DNA of 64,000 bases. Source: Paraburkholderia aromaticivorans (lineage in GTDB: Bacteria > Pseudomonadota > Gammaproteobacteria > Burkholderiales > Burkholderiaceae). This document shows, piece by piece, positions 41,373 to 49,441 of the stretch (positions are counted from its first letter, which is position 1; every line of letters begins with the position of its first letter). The stretch lies in NCBI RefSeq assembly GCF_012689525.1, contig NZ_CP051515.1, positions 1,116,001 through 1,180,000 of the forward strand, read 5' to 3'. Position numbers and translations under genes: made by a program. The notes below the pieces were generated by a model that was not told the origin of the DNA, did no database searches, and saw only the letters and a list, made by a program, of their open reading frames with translations.

Positions 41373-42074
41373 TTCGACCTGACTTTCATTAAAAGATGCC
41401 ACGCATAGGAGACAGTCATGCGGGTTTCAAAGATCGGAAAATCTCTTTCCAAGCTCTACGTCCAGGTTCTGATTGGCATTATTGCCGGTGTCCTCGTCGG
41501 CCACTTCTACCCTGACATCGGTTCTCAACTTAAACCACTCGGTGACCTGTTCATTAAACTGATCCGGATGCTGCTTGCCCCGATCATTTTCGCATCCGTT
41601 GTTGTCGGTATTGCCCGCATGAATGACCTTCACGAGGCTGGCCGGGTGGGCGTCAAGGCAGTCCTTTACTTCGAAGTCGCATCGACGATTGCGCTGCTGG
41701 TTGGCCTCGTGGTCGTGAACATCGTCAGGCCCGGCAGCGGGATGAACATTGATCCCACGCACATCGACAGTTCAGCCATTGCCACCTACACCCACGCGGC
41801 TGAGCAGCATGGGATGCTTGAGTTCTTGATGAGCATCGTTCCGAACAGTATTGTCGGGGCATTCGCGAATGGAGATATTCTGCCCATCATCTTCTTCTCG
41901 CTTCTGCTCGCGGTCGCCCTCGCCAAGCTTGGTCCCCGCACAGCGCCGTTCGTCGACATGCTCGACATGTTCCTTCAGGGCATGTTTGGCGTGGTTCGGA
42001 TCGTCATGTATGTCGCACCGATCGGCGCCTTCGGCGGCATGGCGTTCACAATCGCCAAGTATGGGATTGGCACG

Positions 42075-42083
42075 CTGGCGTCG
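42075..42083. repeat. Target-site duplication, left copy
   Basis: CTGGCGTCG, identical to the copy at 43506-43514. A 9-bp (or 8-bp) duplication is typical of IS256-family insertion. Confidence 0.9.
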
Positions 42084-42109
42084 AGTTATCGTCAGAAGTG
42101 GTGTACGGG
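42084..42109. repeat. Left terminal inverted repeat of the IS
   Basis: A 26-bp end beginning AGTTATCGTCA and ending GTGGTGTACGGG, matching the complement of the right end at 22 of 26 positions. Confidence 0.88.
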
Positions 42110-42198
42110 GATGAGTCGGGGATTTGAGAAGGCGGCGGCGGTTAGCTGAGAATGTTGCTTGTCGAGAGTAACGAACCAGCGAACCGGAATCCACCACC

Positions 42199-43467
42199 AT
42201 GAAGAAGTTTACGGAAGAAACGAACGACGGTAAAGCAGCAGCAAGCGTTGGTAGCCTTGATGAGCTGATCCAGCAAGGCGCGCGACAGATCATCCAGCAG
42301 GCGATCGAGGCAGAATTGGCAACATTGCTCGAACAGTACGGGAACGTGAAGACACTCGACGGCCGGCGCGCCGTGGTGCGCAACGGCTATCTGCCGGAGC
42401 GTGAGGTCGTCACGGCGATCGGTCCGGTCCCAGTCAAAGTGCCGAAGGTACGCGACCGCTCAGGCTCGGGCGTGAAGTTCAATTCGAACATTGTGCCGCC
42501 CTACATCCGCAAGTCACCACGGGTGTCGGCGGCGCTGCCGTGGCTCTACCTGCGCGGCGTGTCGACCGGCAACATGAGTGAGGCGCTCAGCGTGCTGCTG
42601 GGCGAGCAGGCGAAAGGGCTTTCGCCGAACGTAGTCAGCCGCCTGAAGGCGCAATGGGCCGAGGAGCACCTGTTATGGAACCGACGCGACCTAGCAGACG
42701 CGCGCTGGGTCTACTGGTGGGCTGACGGCATTCATACCGGACTGCGCAGCGACGATTCCGAGGGCCAGTGCCTGCTGGTGATCATCGGCGTGAAGCCGGA
42801 CGGAACGAAGGAGCGCGTGGCGATCGCCGACGGCTATCGCGAATCGAAGGACGCGTGGCGCGACGTGTTGCTTGATCTGAAGGCGCGTGGCCTGCAAGGC
42901 GGCCCGATGCTGGCAAGCGGGGACGGTGCCATGGGGTTGTGGGCAGCATTGGCCGAAGTGTTCCCGCAGACGCGGCACCAGCGCTGCTGGTTTCACAAGA
43001 CCGGCAACGTGCTCAACGCATTACCGAAATCGCAGCACAGCCGGGCCAAGGAAGGACTACAGGAAATCTGGCAAGCCGCCACGCGCGAAGACGCGCTCGC
43101 GGCCTTCAACCGTTTCGTCGACGTCTATTCGGCCAAATATCCGAAAGCCGCCGGGAAGCTCACAAACGATCGCAATGAGTTGCTGGCCTTCTACGATTTT
43201 CCCGGGGAGCACTGGCAGCACTTGCGGACCACAAACCCCATTGAATCGACGTTTGCAACCGTCCGGCATCGCACGACGCGCACGCGCAATTGTGTTTCGC
43301 GAGCGACCTTTCTCGGTCTGGCATTCAAGCTGATCGAGTCGGCCGAGCAATCGTGGCGACGCATTCGCGCACCAGAGAAGATCGCCTCGCTGCTTGAAGG
43401 AATCCCTTTCAAGGATGGCGTACCGGTGACCGACAGCACACCGGCCCAGCAACCGTTGGCCGCCTGA
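42199..43467 (+). CDS. IS256-family (Mutator-like) transposase
   Basis: A 422-residue DDE transposase. N-terminal domain, then the catalytic Asp in [12 protein letters not shown], second Asp in [14 protein letters not shown], conserved [15 protein letters not shown], and catalytic Glu in [15 protein letters not shown]. The length is normal and the frame intact. It starts 116 bases inside the left end and stops 38 bases before the right end. The mechanism is cut- or copy-out through a circular intermediate in this family (established knowledge). Confidence 0.96.
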
Positions 43468-43479
43468 TCATGCCTGCCG

Positions 43480-43505
43480 CCCGTACACCACATTTGACTT
43501 TAACT
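43480..43505. repeat. Right terminal inverted repeat of the IS
   Basis: A 26-bp end reading CCCGTACACCAC and finishing TAACT, the inverted partner of the left end. Confidence 0.88.
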
Positions 43506-43514
43506 CTGGCGTCG
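43506..43514. repeat. Target-site duplication, right copy
   Basis: CTGGCGTCG, identical to the left copy. It joins directly to the second half of dctA. Confidence 0.9.
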
Positions 43515-44245
43515 TTTGGCCAGTTGATGGGCTGCCTCTATCTGACTTGTGTCATCTTCGTGGTCGTTGTCCTCGGCATCGTGATGCGGATGTGTGGGTT
43601 GTCGTTATGGAAGTTTCTCCGCTACATTAGGGATGAAATCTTCATCACCCTCGGCACGGCTTCAACTGAAGCGGTGCTCCCGCAAATGCTCATCAAGATG
43701 GAGAAACTGGGGTGTTCACGACCCGTCGTTGGGATGGTATTGCCTACGGGCTACACTTTCAATGCCGATGGAACCGCGATTTACCTGACGATGGCCGCAC
43801 TGTTCATTGCTCAAGCGATGAATATCCATCTGACGATCTGGGACCAGTTGCTCCTGCTCGGCGTGATGTTGCTGACGTCCAAAGGGTCTGCGGGTGTAGC
43901 CGGAGCGGGATTCGTGGCGTTGGCTGCCACGCTGGCCACCATGCACAAAATCCCTGTGTCCGGATTGGTGCTGTTGCTGGGCGTTGACCGCTTCCTCAAC
44001 GAGGCCCGCGCGGTGACGAACCTGATCGGCAACGGGGTGGCGACCATTGTGGTGGCCCGATGGGAGGGTGCGCTCGATATGGACAAGGCGCGAGCGATGC
44101 TCAACCGGACCGCCGACACAAGCATTGATGCCCTTGAGTCCACTGGTCTGGAGCCGGCAGTTGGGGCGACGCCGACGAAAGATTCCATTGTCCAGCCCCA
44201 CAGTCATTGAGTCGTCCAGTCAACTTCATCCCGAGTACCGCAGCC

Positions 44246-46543
44246 ATGACCAAGCAATCTGATACAACGAGCTTCCGCGAAGCCGCCCTCGATTACCACG
44301 AGTTCCCGACGCCTGGGAAGCTGGCGATCACGCCGACGAAGCAGATGATCAACCAGCGCGACCTGGCGCTGGCCTACTCTCCCGGGGTTGCGTTCGCGTG
44401 CGAGGAAATCGTCGAAAACCCGCTGAACGCCGCGCGCTTCACTGCGCGCAGCAACCTCGTCGGCGTTGTCACAAACGGCACCGCGGTGCTGGGCCTGGGC
44501 AACATCGGCCCGCTGGCGTCCAAGCCGGTTATGGAAGGCAAAGCGGTGCTATTCAAGAAGTTTGCCGGCATCGACGTGTTCGACATCGAGCTGAACGAGT
44601 CGGATCCGCACAAGCTGGTGGATGTGATCGCCGCGCTGGAGCCGACCTTCGGCGGGATCAATCTGGAAGACATCAAGGCGCCGGACTGCTTCATCGTCGA
44701 ACGCGAATGCCGCAAGCGCATGAAGATTCCGGTCTTCCACGACGACCAGCACGGCACGGCGATTGTCGTCGCGGCGGCGATCATCAACGGTCTGAAGGTA
44801 GTCGGCAAGCACATCAAGGAAGTGAAGCTGGTGGCGTCGGGCGCAGGTGCGGCGGCGCTGGCCTGTCTTGACCTCCTCGTCGATCTCGGGTTGCCACTCG
44901 AAAACATTCTGGTGACGGACCTCGCCGGCGTGGTCTACAAGGGCCGCGTCGAGTTGATGGACCCGGACAAGGAACGGTTCGCACGCGAAACCGACGCCCG
45001 CACGCTTGCCGAAGCCATCGCCGGCGCGGACGTTTTCCTGGGGCTGTCGGCCGGCGGCGTGCTCAAGCAGGACATGGTCAAGCAGATGGCGGACAAGCCG
45101 CTGATTCTGGCACTCGCCAATCCAACGCCGGAAATCCTGCCGGAACTCGCCCTCGAAGTACGTCCGGATGCCATCCTCGCCACGGGACGTGCCGACTTTC
45201 CGAACCAGGTGAACAACGTTCTGGTGTTCCCGTTCCTGTTCCGCGGCGCGCTGGACGCGGGCGCGACCACGGTGACGCGGGCAATGGAAATTGCGGCCGT
45301 CAACGCGCTTGCTGAACTGGCGCGCCAGGAGCAGAGCGATATCGTTGCGACGGCTTACGGCATTCGGGATCTATCGTTCGGGCCGGAATACCTGATTCCG
45401 AAGCCGTTTGACCCACGTCTGATTGTCAAACTCGCGCCAGCGGTGGCGAAGGCCGCGATGGATTCAGGCGTCGCCGAGCGTCCGATCGAGGACATGGAAG
45501 CCTACGCACAGCATTTGCAGCAGTTCGTGTATCAGAGTGGCACAACGATGAAGCCGATCTTCCAGTTGGCGCGTAGCGTTGAGCCGGAGAAGAAACGCAT
45601 TGTGTTCGCTGAAGGCGAAGAAGAGCGCGTGCTGCGCGCGGTGCGGATTATCGTCGACGAAAAGCTGGCTAAGCCGATTCTGATTGGCCGTCCGGCCGTG
45701 ATCGAGCAGCGGATGACGCGTTACGGCCTGCGTCTGGTCGCGGGTCAGGACTACACGGTCGTGAACACCGACCATGACGAGCGCTACCGCGATTTCTGGC
45801 AGGAATACTACAAGATGATGTCCCGCAAGGGCATCACACAGCAGATGGCGAAGCTCGAAATGCGCCGCCGCACCACGCTGATCGGCGCAATGCTGGTGAA
45901 GCGGGGCGAGGCGGACGGCATGATCTGCGGCATGATCAGCACGACGCACCGGCATCTGCATTTCATCGATCAGGTGATTGGCAAGAAGAAAGGCTGCAAC
46001 GTCTACGCAGCGATGAACGCGCTGGTGCTGCCTGGTCGGCAGATTTTCCTCGTCGATACGCACGTGAACGTCGATCCGACGGCCGAAGAACTCGCCGAAA
46101 TCACGATCATGGCTGCCGACGAAGTGCTGCGCTTCGGCATCGAACCTAAGATCGCGCTGGTGTCGCATTCGAATTTCGGCACGAGCAACGCGCCGTCGGC
46201 GCAGAAGATGCGCGATGTGCTGGCGCTCCTGCGCCAACGCGCACCACACTTGCAGGTGGACGGAGAAATGCATGGTGGTCTTGCGCTCGACCACAAGCTG
46301 CGCCGCGAAGTGATGCCCGATTCGACGCTCGAAGGTGACGCGAACCTGCTCGTGTTGCCGAACATCGACGCGGCCAACATCTCGTACAACCTGCTGAAAA
46401 CGGCCGCGGGCAACAACGTCGCAATTGGCTCGATTTTGTTGGGCGCGGCGCAGCCGGTGCATGTATTGCCGCCATCCGCGACGGTGCGCCGGATCGTCAA
46501 TATGACGGCGTTGCTGGTGGCGGATGTGATCGCACTCAAGTAG
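44246..46543 (+). CDS. maeB: NADP-type malic enzyme with phosphotransacetylase-like domain
   Basis: A 765-residue multimodular malic enzyme (malate to pyruvate and CO2). The malic enzyme part (1-430) shows ALAYSPGVAFACEEI, NGTAVLGLGNIGPLASKPVM, VFHDDQHGTAIVVAAAIING and the NADP-fold SGAGAAALACLDLL. The C-terminal part (about 440-765) is phosphotransacetylase-like (RIVFAEGEEERVLRA, AMNALVLPGRQIFLVDTHVN), probably regulatory. The start at 44246 is by homology; the site upstream is weak. It lies 36 bases after dctA, so the insertion there may reduce its expression unless the element drives it. It completes tartrate-to-pyruvate conversion. Confidence 0.96.
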   Translation: MTKQSDTTSFREAALDYHEFPTPGKLAITPTKQMINQRDLALAYSPGVAFACEEIVENPLNAARFTARSNLVGVVTNGTAVLGLGNIGPLASKPVMEGKAVLFKKFAGIDVFDIELNESDPHKLVDVIAALEPTFGGINLEDIKAPDCFIVERECRKRMKIPVFHDDQHGTAIVVAAAIINGLKVVGKHIKEVKLVASGAGAAALACLDLLVDLGLPLENILVTDLAGVVYKGRVELMDPDKERFARETDARTLAEAIAGADVFLGLSAGGVLKQDMVKQMADKPLILALANPTPEILPELALEVRPDAILATGRADFPNQVNNVLVFPFLFRGALDAGATTVTRAMEIAAVNALAELARQEQSDIVATAYGIRDLSFGPEYLIPKPFDPRLIVKLAPAVAKAAMDSGVAERPIEDMEAYAQHLQQFVYQSGTTMKPIFQLARSVEPEKKRIVFAEGEEERVLRAVRIIVDEKLAKPILIGRPAVIEQRMTRYGLRLVAGQDYTVVNTDHDERYRDFWQEYYKMMSRKGITQQMAKLEMRRRTTLIGAMLVKRGEADGMICGMISTTHRHLHFIDQVIGKKKGCNVYAAMNALVLPGRQIFLVDTHVNVDPTAEELAEITIMAADEVLRFGIEPKIALVSHSNFGTSNAPSAQKMRDVLALLRQRAPHLQVDGEMHGGLALDHKLRREVMPDSTLEGDANLLVLPNIDAANISYNLLKTAAGNNVAIGSILLGAAQPVHVLPPSATVRRIVNMTALLVADVIALK

Positions 46544-46787: not shown

Positions 46788-47243
46788 TTATTCTGCAATG
46801 CGCTTGAAACTGACGTAGTAATCGTCGGTGTAATAGCAGTCGCCTGTCTGCCTGCGCGGTCCACCACATATGATCCGGCGCTGCCCGCGATCCGTCGACC
46901 CAGGCGTGCGAACTGTGTATGTGTGGTAATAGCCGCGCGGATGCTGCGGCAGCAATCCCGCGCTGTTGCGGAACACTACGCCGTCTTCCCCAAAAGGGAA
47001 GGGGCCGCCTGCCTTGATCAGCCGCAATGTTTCGGCTGCTTCCCCCGGCAACTGTGCCTTGGTGACGGTGCCCAGTGCGCCTGACGCGACGGGTGTACCG
47101 CTCGCGCCCTGCGCTGGCTGAACCGGCGCCTGGCTCGCGGATGCGCCCGATGCCTCAGTGACGTTTTGCGATCCCTCCTTGCCGCATCCGCCGAGGATCG
47201 CGCTCAACGCGACGATGCAGGAGAAAGCCCACGCTCTTTTCAC
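46788..47243 (-). CDS. RNase Sa/barnase-fold lipoprotein with lost catalytic residues
   Basis: A 151-residue protein. The signal peptide ends in the lipobox LGGC with Cys 20. A Ser/Ala/Pro-rich linker leads to a microbial RNase (N1/T1/barnase-like) domain: LPGEAAETLRLIKAGGPFPF, EDGVVFRNSAGLLP, GYYHTYTVRTPGSTDRGQRR and CYYTDDYYVSFKRI. In RNase Sa the general base is Glu 54 (YYHEYTV) and the acid is His 85 (GDHYATF). Here these are Thr 108 and Tyr 142; the Arg residues remain. It therefore probably cannot cleave RNA by the usual mechanism. The start is GTG with GGAG 9 bases upstream. It is convergent with maeB. Confidence 0.85.
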   Translation of the reverse strand: MKRAWAFSCIVALSAILGGCGKEGSQNVTEASGASASQAPVQPAQGASGTPVASGALGTVTKAQLPGEAAETLRLIKAGGPFPFGEDGVVFRNSAGLLPQHPRGYYHTYTVRTPGSTDRGQRRIICGGPRRQTGDCYYTDDYYVSFKRIAE

Positions 47244-47653
47244 GAAACGGGTCTCCTCTCGTTGACCAGAATTCGACGACCAGGATAGATGTAAAGGTAT
47301 CGCTATTGGCGGAGCAAATCAATGTTCGGCAGGAGATAGACACTTTATACACCGCAACCAGGGCGATGTACCGTTTTCGGCGTTTGGGACTGCATGGCGC
47401 CCGCATGCAAGATGTCGACTCTCCACTAAAGTCCACCATGTACCGGCCGTTAACGATGTGATGGCGTTCCGGGCCGATCTATATCTCGGTGACTGGCGAA
47501 ATTAGTCCGTCGCAACCTATCGGCTCACGGTGCACGCCATCAACGATCCTGGAACCACTCGGAAGAACCGGTGCAGGAGTTCATTTACCTACGATGTTGC
47601 AATTGGGTTCAACACCAGGATAAGCCGGTGGACCGGCTACAGGGGATCTGGAG
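47244..47653. other. 410-base divergent intergenic region
   Basis: This separates the RNase-like lipoprotein gene from the 595-residue protein gene and must hold both promoters. A perfect dyad AGCCGGT-GG-ACCGGCT (47624-47639) ends 14 bases before the ATG at 47654 and overlaps the likely ribosome-binding zone's upstream edge. Otherwise I saw no gene or RNA. Confidence 0.5.
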
Positions 47654-49441
47654 ATGGGTGCAAAAGGACCGTTGGAAGTTGTCAATGCAAGCGAGTGGAT
47701 CCGCCGCACGGCGCTGACTCTCAGCGCGCGAAGCGCGAGCACACGGCGCGTCGATGCTGCGTACTCCGTCTGGTGCACGGCGCGCTTCGACTCGCTCAAG
47801 GCCGCCACCCTGCGCGACGCCCTCGACGACTACGTCGCCGAAAAAGGCGGTGACTGGGCCCGAGTGCCGCGCAACACCGACAGTGGCGGCCTGATGGAAT
47901 ACATCCTGCGGCAGGCAACCGCCGTTGCACCGCCCCGGGCGTCGGCCGCGGCCGCCCGCGACCGGATCCGGAACTTCGATATCCCGCACTCGCGTTACGG
48001 TGTGCTCTACCTGCTGGGCAATCTCAACATCGACATGAACTGCTTCACCATCGCGATGGAGGGCGTGGCCGCCGTCGGTGGCGCAGTGGGGTCCGGCTTC
48101 GCCACGAACACGCAACATCTGAACAGCGCCACCCAGGCCACCCGGCATGTCAGCATGGCAGGCCACCAGGTGTCCGCTCAAGCGCTCACCACCGCATCCG
48201 CGACAGGCGTCAAGCTGTTGCCCAAGGGGGTCGCGAAAGTGGACGATATTTTCGGTCTGAGCGCCCCCAACACCAGAGAGCGGCGCTGGGCGACCACCGG
48301 CACCGTCAGGCCCGGCATGGAGAGCCCCGGCAGCGGAGTGGTCAAGTCCAGCGTGACCTGGACTTACCCGGTGACCCAGGCCGGCTTCGACATGATCAAG
48401 GAAGATCCGGCTCTTTTCCTCAACCCTTGGGTCTTGCCGACCACCATGGTCGGCGCGGCGTTCGTCACCGTCACGGAAACGCTCAACAACCTGCGCCGCG
48501 AGATAGAAAGCGCCGTCACGTGGGCTTTCGAGAAGATCAAGAATGCCTTGCTCGGCGCATCGGCCGGCACGTTCAACCTGGCCGGCAGCGTGGTGCGTTC
48601 GTTGATCAAGGTCGTCGTCACACAGTGCCTCGCCAGCGCGGCGCCTTTCGTGGGCGCGGCCATCGACATCGGCGCGGGTATTGTCAAGACGCTGCGCGCC
48701 GCGGCGGAAAAGGTCGGTGCCTGGCTGCAGCGGCGCCGCATCGAACTGAACCCAGGACATCCCGAACTGATTGCCGCAACGCTTGAAGGCGAAATGGAAT
48801 CCGGCATTTTCCAGGGATTGTGGACCACGCTGAAAGGCGTGGTGTCCATGTCGTTGAGCACCTTCCTGCCGGGCGCCGGCAGCCTCGTATCGGCTATCGT
48901 CACGGGCGTCGAGTGGCTGGTGAAGTTCACCTTCCGCCTGTGGGAGCAGAGCAAGATTCACGCGTTTCTCGTCAAGGCACGCGAGGTCTACCTGCAAGAG
49001 CGTGAGCTCGCCACGCGCGACCCGGGCCCGCGTGGCCTCGAGTTCCAGCCGAATATGGATCCGTCCAAAGGCGGCATCATCCATGATCTCGACAAGTTCA
49101 AGACGTTTTTCCAGGAAGGGTGCGACGCCAGCCCGCTGATCCCGATGCTGACGTTGAATACCGGCATTTGCGGCAGCCTGATGACGCTCGCCAACCTGTT
49201 CCGGGATGAAATGGAACCGGCTCGCGAGGTGGTCGATCGCGCCACCTATAACAGCGGCGCGGAGTATTTTGCCCGGCTCAAGGGTTTCGGCGCGCGGTAT
49301 CTGCAGAGCTCCGGCTTCAAGTTCCAGACACGCGACACCGAGGGCCGCAGCAATATTCAGGGTCTGCTCGATCACGCGGTGCATCATCACACGCAGGATA
49401 CGTTCGCCGACAAGGCCGCCGCCTTCCTCTCGGCAACGTAA
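47654..49441 (+). CDS. Unrecognised 595-residue protein next to the T6SS, possible membrane-acting effector
   Basis: I do not recognise the family. Residues 1-300 are mainly soluble, with a Gly/Ala-rich segment around 133-150. Residues 301-345 (ASAGTFNLAGSVVRSLIKVV, then APFVGAAIDIGAGIVKTL) and 386-428 (FQGLWTTLKGVVSMSLSTFL, then AGSLVSAIVTGVEWLVKF) form two amphipathic or hydrophobic blocks separated by a charged linker. The C-terminal 165 residues are soluble and end in His-rich LLDHAVHHHTQDTF. There is no signal peptide. Initiation at ATG 47654 follows AGGGGA by 7 bases. It lies 372 bases before tssB, same strand. The layout would suit a pore-forming or membrane-inserting T6SS cargo, but this is inference; a structural or regulatory role is equally open. 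Confidence 0.8.
   Translation: MGAKGPLEVVNASEWIRRTALTLSARSASTRRVDAAYSVWCTARFDSLKAATLRDALDDYVAEKGGDWARVPRNTDSGGLMEYILRQATAVAPPRASAAAARDRIRNFDIPHSRYGVLYLLGNLNIDMNCFTIAMEGVAAVGGAVGSGFATNTQHLNSATQATRHVSMAGHQVSAQALTTASATGVKLLPKGVAKVDDIFGLSAPNTRERRWATTGTVRPGMESPGSGVVKSSVTWTYPVTQAGFDMIKEDPALFLNPWVLPTTMVGAAFVTVTETLNNLRREIESAVTWAFEKIKNALLGASAGTFNLAGSVVRSLIKVVVTQCLASAAPFVGAAIDIGAGIVKTLRAAAEKVGAWLQRRRIELNPGHPELIAATLEGEMESGIFQGLWTTLKGVVSMSLSTFLPGAGSLVSAIVTGVEWLVKFTFRLWEQSKIHAFLVKAREVYLQERELATRDPGPRGLEFQPNMDPSKGGIIHDLDKFKTFFQEGCDASPLIPMLTLNTGICGSLMTLANLFRDEMEPAREVVDRATYNSGAEYFARLKGFGARYLQSSGFKFQTRDTEGRSNIQGLLDHAVHHHTQDTFADKAAAFLSAT

What the first reader, a model, noticed from the sequence alone, without database searches (positions are those of the whole stretch)
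46788..47243. RNase Sa/barnase-like lipoprotein with both catalytic residues replaced
The domain aligns clearly with RNase Sa, but the general base Glu (YYHEYTV) is Thr 108 here (YYHTYTV) and the general acid His (GDHYATF) is Tyr 142 (DDYYVSF). The Arg cluster and fold landmarks stay. Tyr from His needs one base change (CAC to TAC). With the LGGC lipobox this looks like a membrane-anchored dead RNase: a binding protein, an immunity-type decoy, or a decaying gene. An inactive barnase-like lipoprotein next to a T6SS region is unusual.
Basis: partly seen in the sequence, partly recalled or inferred. Interest (0 to 1): 0.72.

Follow-up and report, generated by a model that had tools for sequence, protein, structure and literature searches.

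The report
Conserved dead RNase lipoprotein, roaming gene
A bacterial envelope protein that looks like an RNA-cutting enzyme has lost its cutting residues, yet many related bacteria keep it well conserved at ever-different places in their genomes, so it probably has a new job that is not cutting RNA.

Summary
The 151-residue protein encoded on the minus strand at 46788-47243 is an RNase Sa-type domain (RNase Sa3 E 1e-28; confident fold model) behind an LGGC lipobox. The general base is Thr108 and the general acid Tyr142. A third residue, the guanine-binding Glu, is also replaced (Ala95). Decay or sequencing error is unlikely: 92 of 92 distinct relatives have Tyr142 and Ala/Thr at 108, and the domain is under purifying selection as strong as on active-type copies (dN/dS 0.12 vs 0.14). 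The dead form arose once on the tree, apparently from a lipidated RNase of Caballeronia-type genomes that keeps Glu/Glu/His. Active-type copies have a barstar gene just downstream (41 of 41) and usually maeB upstream (34 of 41). The dead copy kept the promoter block, has no barstar nearby (0 of 80) and lies in varied surroundings (0 of 91 locus pairs share a flank). The T6SS neighbourhood is incidental. Most likely it is an outer-membrane-tethered pseudoenzyme that uses the old active-site cleft, still Arg/Tyr-rich, to bind an anionic partner without cleaving it. Activity, location and ligand are untested. It is a new variant of a known kind, not a new fold.

The parts
46788..47243 (-). gene for the inactive RNase Sa-like lipoprotein (151 aa, GTG start, TAA stop)
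   Evidence: ORF list; PF00545 E 6e-22; RNase Sa3 E 1.1e-28; orthologues
47184..47243 (-). signal peptide with lipobox LGGC; lipidation at Cys20 predicted
   Evidence: sequence; Cys20 in 120 of 120 closest homologues, Lys22 in 120 of 120, Gly21 in 114 of 120
47073..47183 (-). Ser/Ala/Gln/Pro-rich linker, residues 21-57, weakly constrained
   Evidence: median dN/dS 0.48 over residues 21-59 against 0.12 in the domain
46791..47072 (-). RNase Sa-type domain, residues 58-151
46959..46961 (-). Ala95, in place of the guanine-binding Glu (RNase Sa Glu41)
   Evidence: alignment; codon; A 83, S 7, D 2 of 92 distinct copies
46920..46922 (-). Thr108, in place of the general base Glu (RNase Sa Glu54)
   Evidence: alignment; codon; A 55, T 37 of 92
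46818..46820 (-). Tyr142, in place of the general acid His (RNase Sa His85)
   Evidence: alignment; codon; Y in 92 of 92
47294..47322 (-). conserved promoter-like block TTGATT-N17-TACCTT, shared with the region upstream of the active-type paralogues
   Evidence: A pattern fitted to sequences already seen matches upstream of 62 of 79 dead copies and 36 of 41 active-type copies; in the 80 dead loci (3.0 Mb, both strands) it occurs nowhere else. Promoter function is inferred.

Best explanation
A conserved pseudoenzyme. A lipidated, usually maeB-linked RNase of the RNase Sa/barnase family was duplicated together with its promoter region, most likely in the Caballeronia lineage. The copy lost general base, general acid and guanine-binding Glu, and its active-site face was remodelled and then held. 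Without toxicity it no longer needed the neighbouring barstar gene and could spread as a lone promoter-plus-gene unit through Caballeronia and Paraburkholderia (inferred from loci and tree). The product is exported, lipidated and, by its lipobox context, probably held at the outer membrane on a flexible linker (inferred). There the intact fold most likely binds, without cleaving it, an anionic partner through the retained cleft (Arg119, Arg122, Arg123, Tyr143, plus the new invariant Arg92, Arg112, Tyr142). Inactivity and a conserved function are strongly indicated. The binding role is inference, and the ligand is unknown.
For: All three residues changed together in every dead copy read, no mixed ones: 126 of 167 locus copies (some fetched twice) lack all three Glu/Glu/His, 41 keep them. 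Wider controls: 119 of 120 EEH, 1 DEH among orthologues of the window genome's other RNase; 119 of 120 EEH, 1 EET among other relatives. Purifying selection: median dN/dS 0.117 (92 copies) vs 0.142 (38 active-type). Single clade, SH-aLRT 100, trait columns left out, nested with the lipidated RNases. Dead-type fixed residues Arg92, Arg112, Gly115, Tyr142 in 92 of 92. Shared promoter block. Barstar 67-230 bp downstream on the same strand in 41 of 41 active-type loci, none in 80 dead loci. Fold intact. Shared flanks: dead 0 of 91 pairs on each side, active 120 of 120.
Against: No activity, binding or location was measured. Four Args of the lipidated active parent, at 94, 96, 115 and 117, are replaced, which argues against RNA as the ligand and weakens a general anionic pocket; net domain charge is nevertheless +5.3 in 120 dead against +4.5 in 120 active orthologues. 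Arg119 is not absolute: 118 of 120. Two deep copies keep an acid (Asp) at 95. Arg122/Arg123 may be structural. No conserved neighbour hints at a partner.
Confidence: 0.6

Rival explanations
1. It still binds RNA or nucleotides specifically (a periplasmic or surface RNA-binding protein), only without cutting.
For: Fold and Arg119/122/123/Tyr143 kept. A fungal RNase-like effector without the catalytic triad was reported to interact with RNA (PMC6464244, abstract and passages).
Against: The guanine-binding Glu is replaced in 92 of 92 (Asp in 2 of them) and four Args of the active parent are replaced.
Confidence: 0.17
2. Immunity-type decoy: it soaks up an inhibitor, toxin or receptor that targets RNase Sa-like proteins, or protects against imported RNase toxins.
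For: Lone, apparently laterally spreading gene with its own promoter and patchy presence: 27 of 60 listed genomes of the window's genus, 47 of 56 of a second genus (hand count).
Against: No barstar, T6SS or other shared neighbour in most loci. The His that barstar grips in barnase is lost (contacts recalled). Decoys usually diversify (recalled); this domain is held constant.
Confidence: 0.12
3. An RNase with altered chemistry: Tyr142 or His107 takes over catalysis.
For: Tyr142 is invariant, 92 of 92.
Against: Both acid and base are gone. Loss of the His alone gave an inactive barnase control (H102A, PMC10018487 passages; PDB 2c4b title 'catalytically inactive barnase mutant H102A'). Position 108 switches between Ala and Thr, not what a catalytic residue does. 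His107 is not invariant: 118 of 120. No barstar guard is kept nearby.
Confidence: 0.07
4. A decaying gene or sequencing artefact.
For: Key residues lost; one or two base changes each.
Against: Same state in 92 distinct copies from many species; dN/dS 0.117; promoter block kept in 62 of 79; no stops in any copy above 70% identity listed.
Confidence: 0.02

Closest known systems
RNase Sa / Sa2 / Sa3 (guanyl-specific RNases of Streptomyces, PF00545)
   Different: General base, general acid and guanine-binding Glu all replaced; lipid anchor signal and linker; two Cys (126, 136) that it shares with its active paralogues.
Barnase-barstar pairs
   Same: Same superfamily; the window genome's EEH paralogue has a barstar gene just downstream.
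   Different: The dead copy has no barstar nearby (0 of 80 loci) and lacks the catalytic His.
RALPH effectors of powdery mildew, e.g. CSEP0064/BEC1054 (PMC6464244)
   Same: T1/F1-type RNase fold kept, catalytic triad absent, proposed to act as a pseudoenzyme by binding (passages read).
   Different: Fungal, secreted into plants, a large diverse effector family; here a bacterial lipoprotein under strong purifying selection. No common descent of the loss is implied.
Lipidated RNase of Caballeronia-type genomes (L142-L161, L169)
   Same: Nearest relative and likely parent: same signal peptide, lipobox, linker style and promoter block.
   Different: Keeps Glu/Glu/His and a downstream barstar gene; sits beside maeB in most of the loci read.

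Membership tests
PF00545 / RNase Sa fold family (homology) | sequence profile match above the curated cut-off | tested here: met
   78.4 bits, cut-off 24
PF00545 / RNase Sa fold family (homology) | RNase Sa fold | tested here: met
guanyl-specific RNase (as an enzyme) | general base Glu | tested here: not met
   Thr108; A/T in 92 of 92
guanyl-specific RNase (as an enzyme) | general acid His | tested here: not met
   Tyr142; Y in 92 of 92
guanyl-specific RNase (as an enzyme) | guanine-binding Glu | tested here: not met
   Ala95; A 83, S 7, D 2 of 92
guanyl-specific RNase (as an enzyme) | phosphate-site Arg residues | tested here: met
   Arg119, 122, 123 in 126 of 126 dead locus copies; Arg119 in 118, Arg122 and Arg123 in 120 of 120
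guanyl-specific RNase (as an enzyme) | RNA cleavage | not testable with these tools
   needs an assay
toxin-immunity pair with barstar | barstar gene next to the RNase gene | tested here: not met
   0 of 80 loci; the window genome's only barstar match lies beside its other RNase on C3
T6SS effector or accessory protein | regular linkage to T6SS genes | tested here: not met
   3 of 80 loci
bacterial lipoprotein | signal peptide with lipobox Cys | tested here: met
   Cys20 in 120 of 120; my loose lipobox pattern matched 117 of 120
bacterial lipoprotein | lipidation and outer-membrane location | not testable with these tools
   inferred: Gly, not Asp, after Cys20; the E. coli sorting rule is recalled

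The most novel reading that the evidence does not exclude
A roaming single-gene pseudoenzyme: an RNase Sa-type enzyme that, once dead, escaped its barstar partner and its fixed locus. Keeping its promoter and lipid anchor, it spread laterally through two genera as a self-contained unit with a new, strongly selected binding role at the cell envelope. No bacterial pseudoenzyme of this family showed up in the listings of my literature searches (open-licence PMC only, top 15 of 91 seen).
Probability: 0.4. Interest if true: 0.72.

Novelty: new variant of a known kind. Interest (0 to 1): 0.5.

Why it matters
Where sources name these proteins they call them 'ribonuclease' or 'ribonuclease T1' and the like, which by sequence is probably wrong for the whole group. 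The family gives a clean case of a toxin-like enzyme turned into a non-enzyme: one origin on the tree, a close living parent still beside its barstar, the same promoter block, and many orthologues. That makes the question 'what does a dead RNase do in the envelope?' directly testable. It also suggests that loss of toxicity can free a gene from its antidote and so from its locus.

Tried and rejected
T6SS link: rejected. In the one relative with a close homologue (79%) of the neighbouring ORF 47654-49441 (G020), that ORF lies about 112 kb from the dead RNase gene.

Decay: rejected by dN/dS and conservation.

Mobile-element ends: shared DNA mostly stops at about -80 to -100 upstream and within about 20 bases either side of the stop codon; one subgroup shares about -270 to +160. 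A count of 10-mers showed no boundary repeat common to the loci, so how the gene moves is unexplained. No hit in 50,697 phage records. Seven megaplasmid records have full-length matches at 66-82% identity; the five that I fetched are all of the dead type.

First structure model (39 rows, whole protein): mean pLDDT 57.7, no Foldseek match at E 0.001 or better. Discarded. A domain-only model with a more diverse alignment gave 90.5.

Flank control: an MFS transporter proved a large multi-copy family and was not used. DAHP synthase (75 upstream and 88 downstream of 435 pairs share a flank) and a LysR regulator (36 and 5 of 36) were used. These are only two genes besides the active RNase, so the control is thin.

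maeB beside the active type is not universal: found in the fetched stretch of 34 of 41 active-type loci. Five loci of 4.5-8 kb lack it (L142, L145, L158, L159, L160), and two stretches of 1.2 kb are too short to tell.

Lateral spread: the genus-label test is soft. 14 changes on 62 labelled rows equals the lowest of 100 shuffles (mean 19.9), so some genus signal remains.

Ascertainment: the search used the patterns HPRGYYH[AT] and EAA[ED]TLRLI. The first selects Ala/Thr at 108, so those 80 loci are biased at that position; position 142 was not in a pattern. The protein searches without such a pattern give the same picture. One search lists only the best 120 of 448. Of the 55-65% hits I fetched 20 regions and a few more; the rest were not read.

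Dropped rows: L167 (two stops) was left out of dN/dS and tree. The 166 sequences without stops or N collapsed to 130 distinct ones; dN/dS pairs were kept only at dS 0.1-1.5.

PADLOC and NCBIfam gave nothing for the RNase gene or ORF 47654-49441. Literature searches were for comparison and residue roles; one found nothing useful.

Full report

The lost residues. In the 120 closest of 448 homologues, position 108 is T in 68 and A in 52, and position 142 is Y in 120. Across 167 locus copies, some of them the same gene fetched twice, 126 lack Glu/Glu/His at the three positions and 41 keep all three; none is mixed, though two of the 126 have Asp at 95. Of 130 distinct sequences without stops, 92 are of the dead and 38 of the active type. 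Controls: of 120 orthologues (closest of 6368) of the window genome's other RNase, 119 are EEH and 1 is DEH; of 120 other relatives (closest of 7992), 119 are EEH and 1 is EET. 'Active type' means only that the residues are present; nothing was assayed.

Not decay. Nei-Gojobori dN/dS over the domain has a median of 0.117 among 92 dead copies (4101 pairs) and 0.142 among 38 active-type copies (573 pairs), pairs kept at dS 0.1-1.5. For the dead copies the linker gives 0.48 and the signal peptide 0.33. The dead group also has its own fixed residues: Arg92, Arg112, Gly115 and Tyr142 in 92 of 92. Args present in 21 of 21 lipidated active copies at 94, 96, 115 and 117 are replaced, while Arg119, Arg122, Arg123 and Tyr143 stay. 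The catalytic face was rebuilt and then held. That barnase without its His is inactive is on record (H102A control, passages of PMC10018487; title of PDB 2c4b).

Origin. With the three trait columns left out, the 92 dead copies form one clade (SH-aLRT 100). They nest among lipidated EEH RNases, which are then not one clade themselves (quick method, many weak inner branches; the two forks that place them there have 85 and 91). These lipidated RNases (L142-L161, L169) come from genus g34 of the search. One g34 genome, G138, has its dead copy at the same coordinates as Caballeronia sp. M1242, so I read g34 as Caballeronia. They share signal peptide and lipobox with the dead copies. Both types carry the same upstream block, TTGATT (or TTGCTT) and AGCGATAC at a -35/-10-like distance. 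A pattern fitted to it matches before 62 of 79 dead and 36 of 41 active-type copies and nowhere else in the 80 dead loci, 3.0 Mb of both strands. So promoter region and gene were probably copied together. On the tree His to Tyr needs one change, position 108 needs 12 and position 95 needs 7.

Escape from barstar and from the locus. In 41 of 41 active-type loci a barstar homologue starts 67-230 bp downstream of the aligned RNase end on the same strand; in 80 dead loci with up to 10 kb flanks none was found. The window genome has one barstar match, directly beside its EEH copy on C3. maeB is in the fetched stretch of 34 of 41 active-type loci; five lack it and two stretches are too short. The 80 named loci (best 80 of 88 relatives) share few neighbours: 78 upstream flanks fall into 56 groups and 78 downstream flanks into 60. 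Among the 14 dead copies of one genome panel 0 of 91 pairs share an upstream or downstream flank; for the active RNase it is 120 of 120 on each side, for a DAHP synthase 75 and 88 of 435, for a LysR gene 36 and 5 of 36. Genus names change 14 times among 62 labelled rows of the gene tree. That is far more than one change for strictly vertical descent, but equals the lowest of 100 shuffles (mean 19.9), so some genus signal remains and weak branches make the test soft. By hand count, with E below 1e-60 as the line, 27 of 60 listed genomes of the window's genus and 47 of 56 of g34 have the dead copy, and none of the other listed genomes; each of these 74 has at least one further RNase match. 62 genomes without a match are not listed, so their genera are unknown to me.

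T6SS. tssB and tssC lie from 2.6 kb upstream of the gene's start here, but none of 80 other loci has them, and proteins of the window's T6SS stretch or a VgrG match in 3 of 80. The link is incidental.

Most likely working. Shown by sequence: export and lipobox signals, a predicted intact fold, replaced catalytic and guanine-binding residues, conservation, common upstream block. Inferred: lipidation and outer-membrane tethering, no RNase activity, and use of the remaining Arg/Tyr cleft for binding without cleavage. The nature of the ligand is open. RNA is less likely because the guanine site and four Args are lost. Barstar is less likely because of the compartment and the lost His (recalled contacts).

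Comparison with what is known. It is a member of PF00545 by descent and fold but fails the features that define a guanyl-specific RNase. The closest known kind is the fungal RALPH pseudoenzymes (CSEP0064/BEC1054, PMC6464244, abstract and passages), which keep the T1-type fold without the catalytic triad. A survey of polymorphic toxins describes simple barnase-barstar gene pairs as widely distributed (PMC3482391, passages). The listings of searches (open-licence PMC only; one search showed 15 of 91 papers) named no bacterial pseudoenzyme of this family. I therefore file it as a new variant of a known kind.

Noticed in passing
window 41418-44210: A dctA-like dicarboxylate symporter gene is split by an IS256-family (Mutator) transposase (42199-43467); its two halves flank the insertion.
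   Followed up: no
window 44207-46543: A second maeB gene, 91% identical to the one on C3. maeB is the usual upstream neighbour of the active-type RNase (34 of 41). Here the dead copy also lies beside a maeB, convergent, which none of 80 other dead loci shows; coincidence or recombination is unresolved.
   Followed up: partly
window 47654-49441: 595-aa ORF between the dead RNase gene and tssB with no Pfam, NCBIfam or PADLOC match; homologues in 5 of 59 genomes searched, own genome included.
   Followed up: partly
L142-L161, L169: Caballeronia-type genomes carry a lipobox-bearing RNase Sa-like protein with all three catalytic and guanine-site residues beside barstar.
   Followed up: partly
L158, L159: These two active-type loci lack maeB and the promoter block; their upstream DNA differs from that of their relatives.
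   Followed up: no
L167 (G221): An active-type copy interrupted by two TAA codons in a 4.2 Mb g34 genome.
   Followed up: no
L043 and L050: Two dead copies in one genome, Caballeronia sp. SEWSISQ10-4 2, at different places.
   Followed up: no
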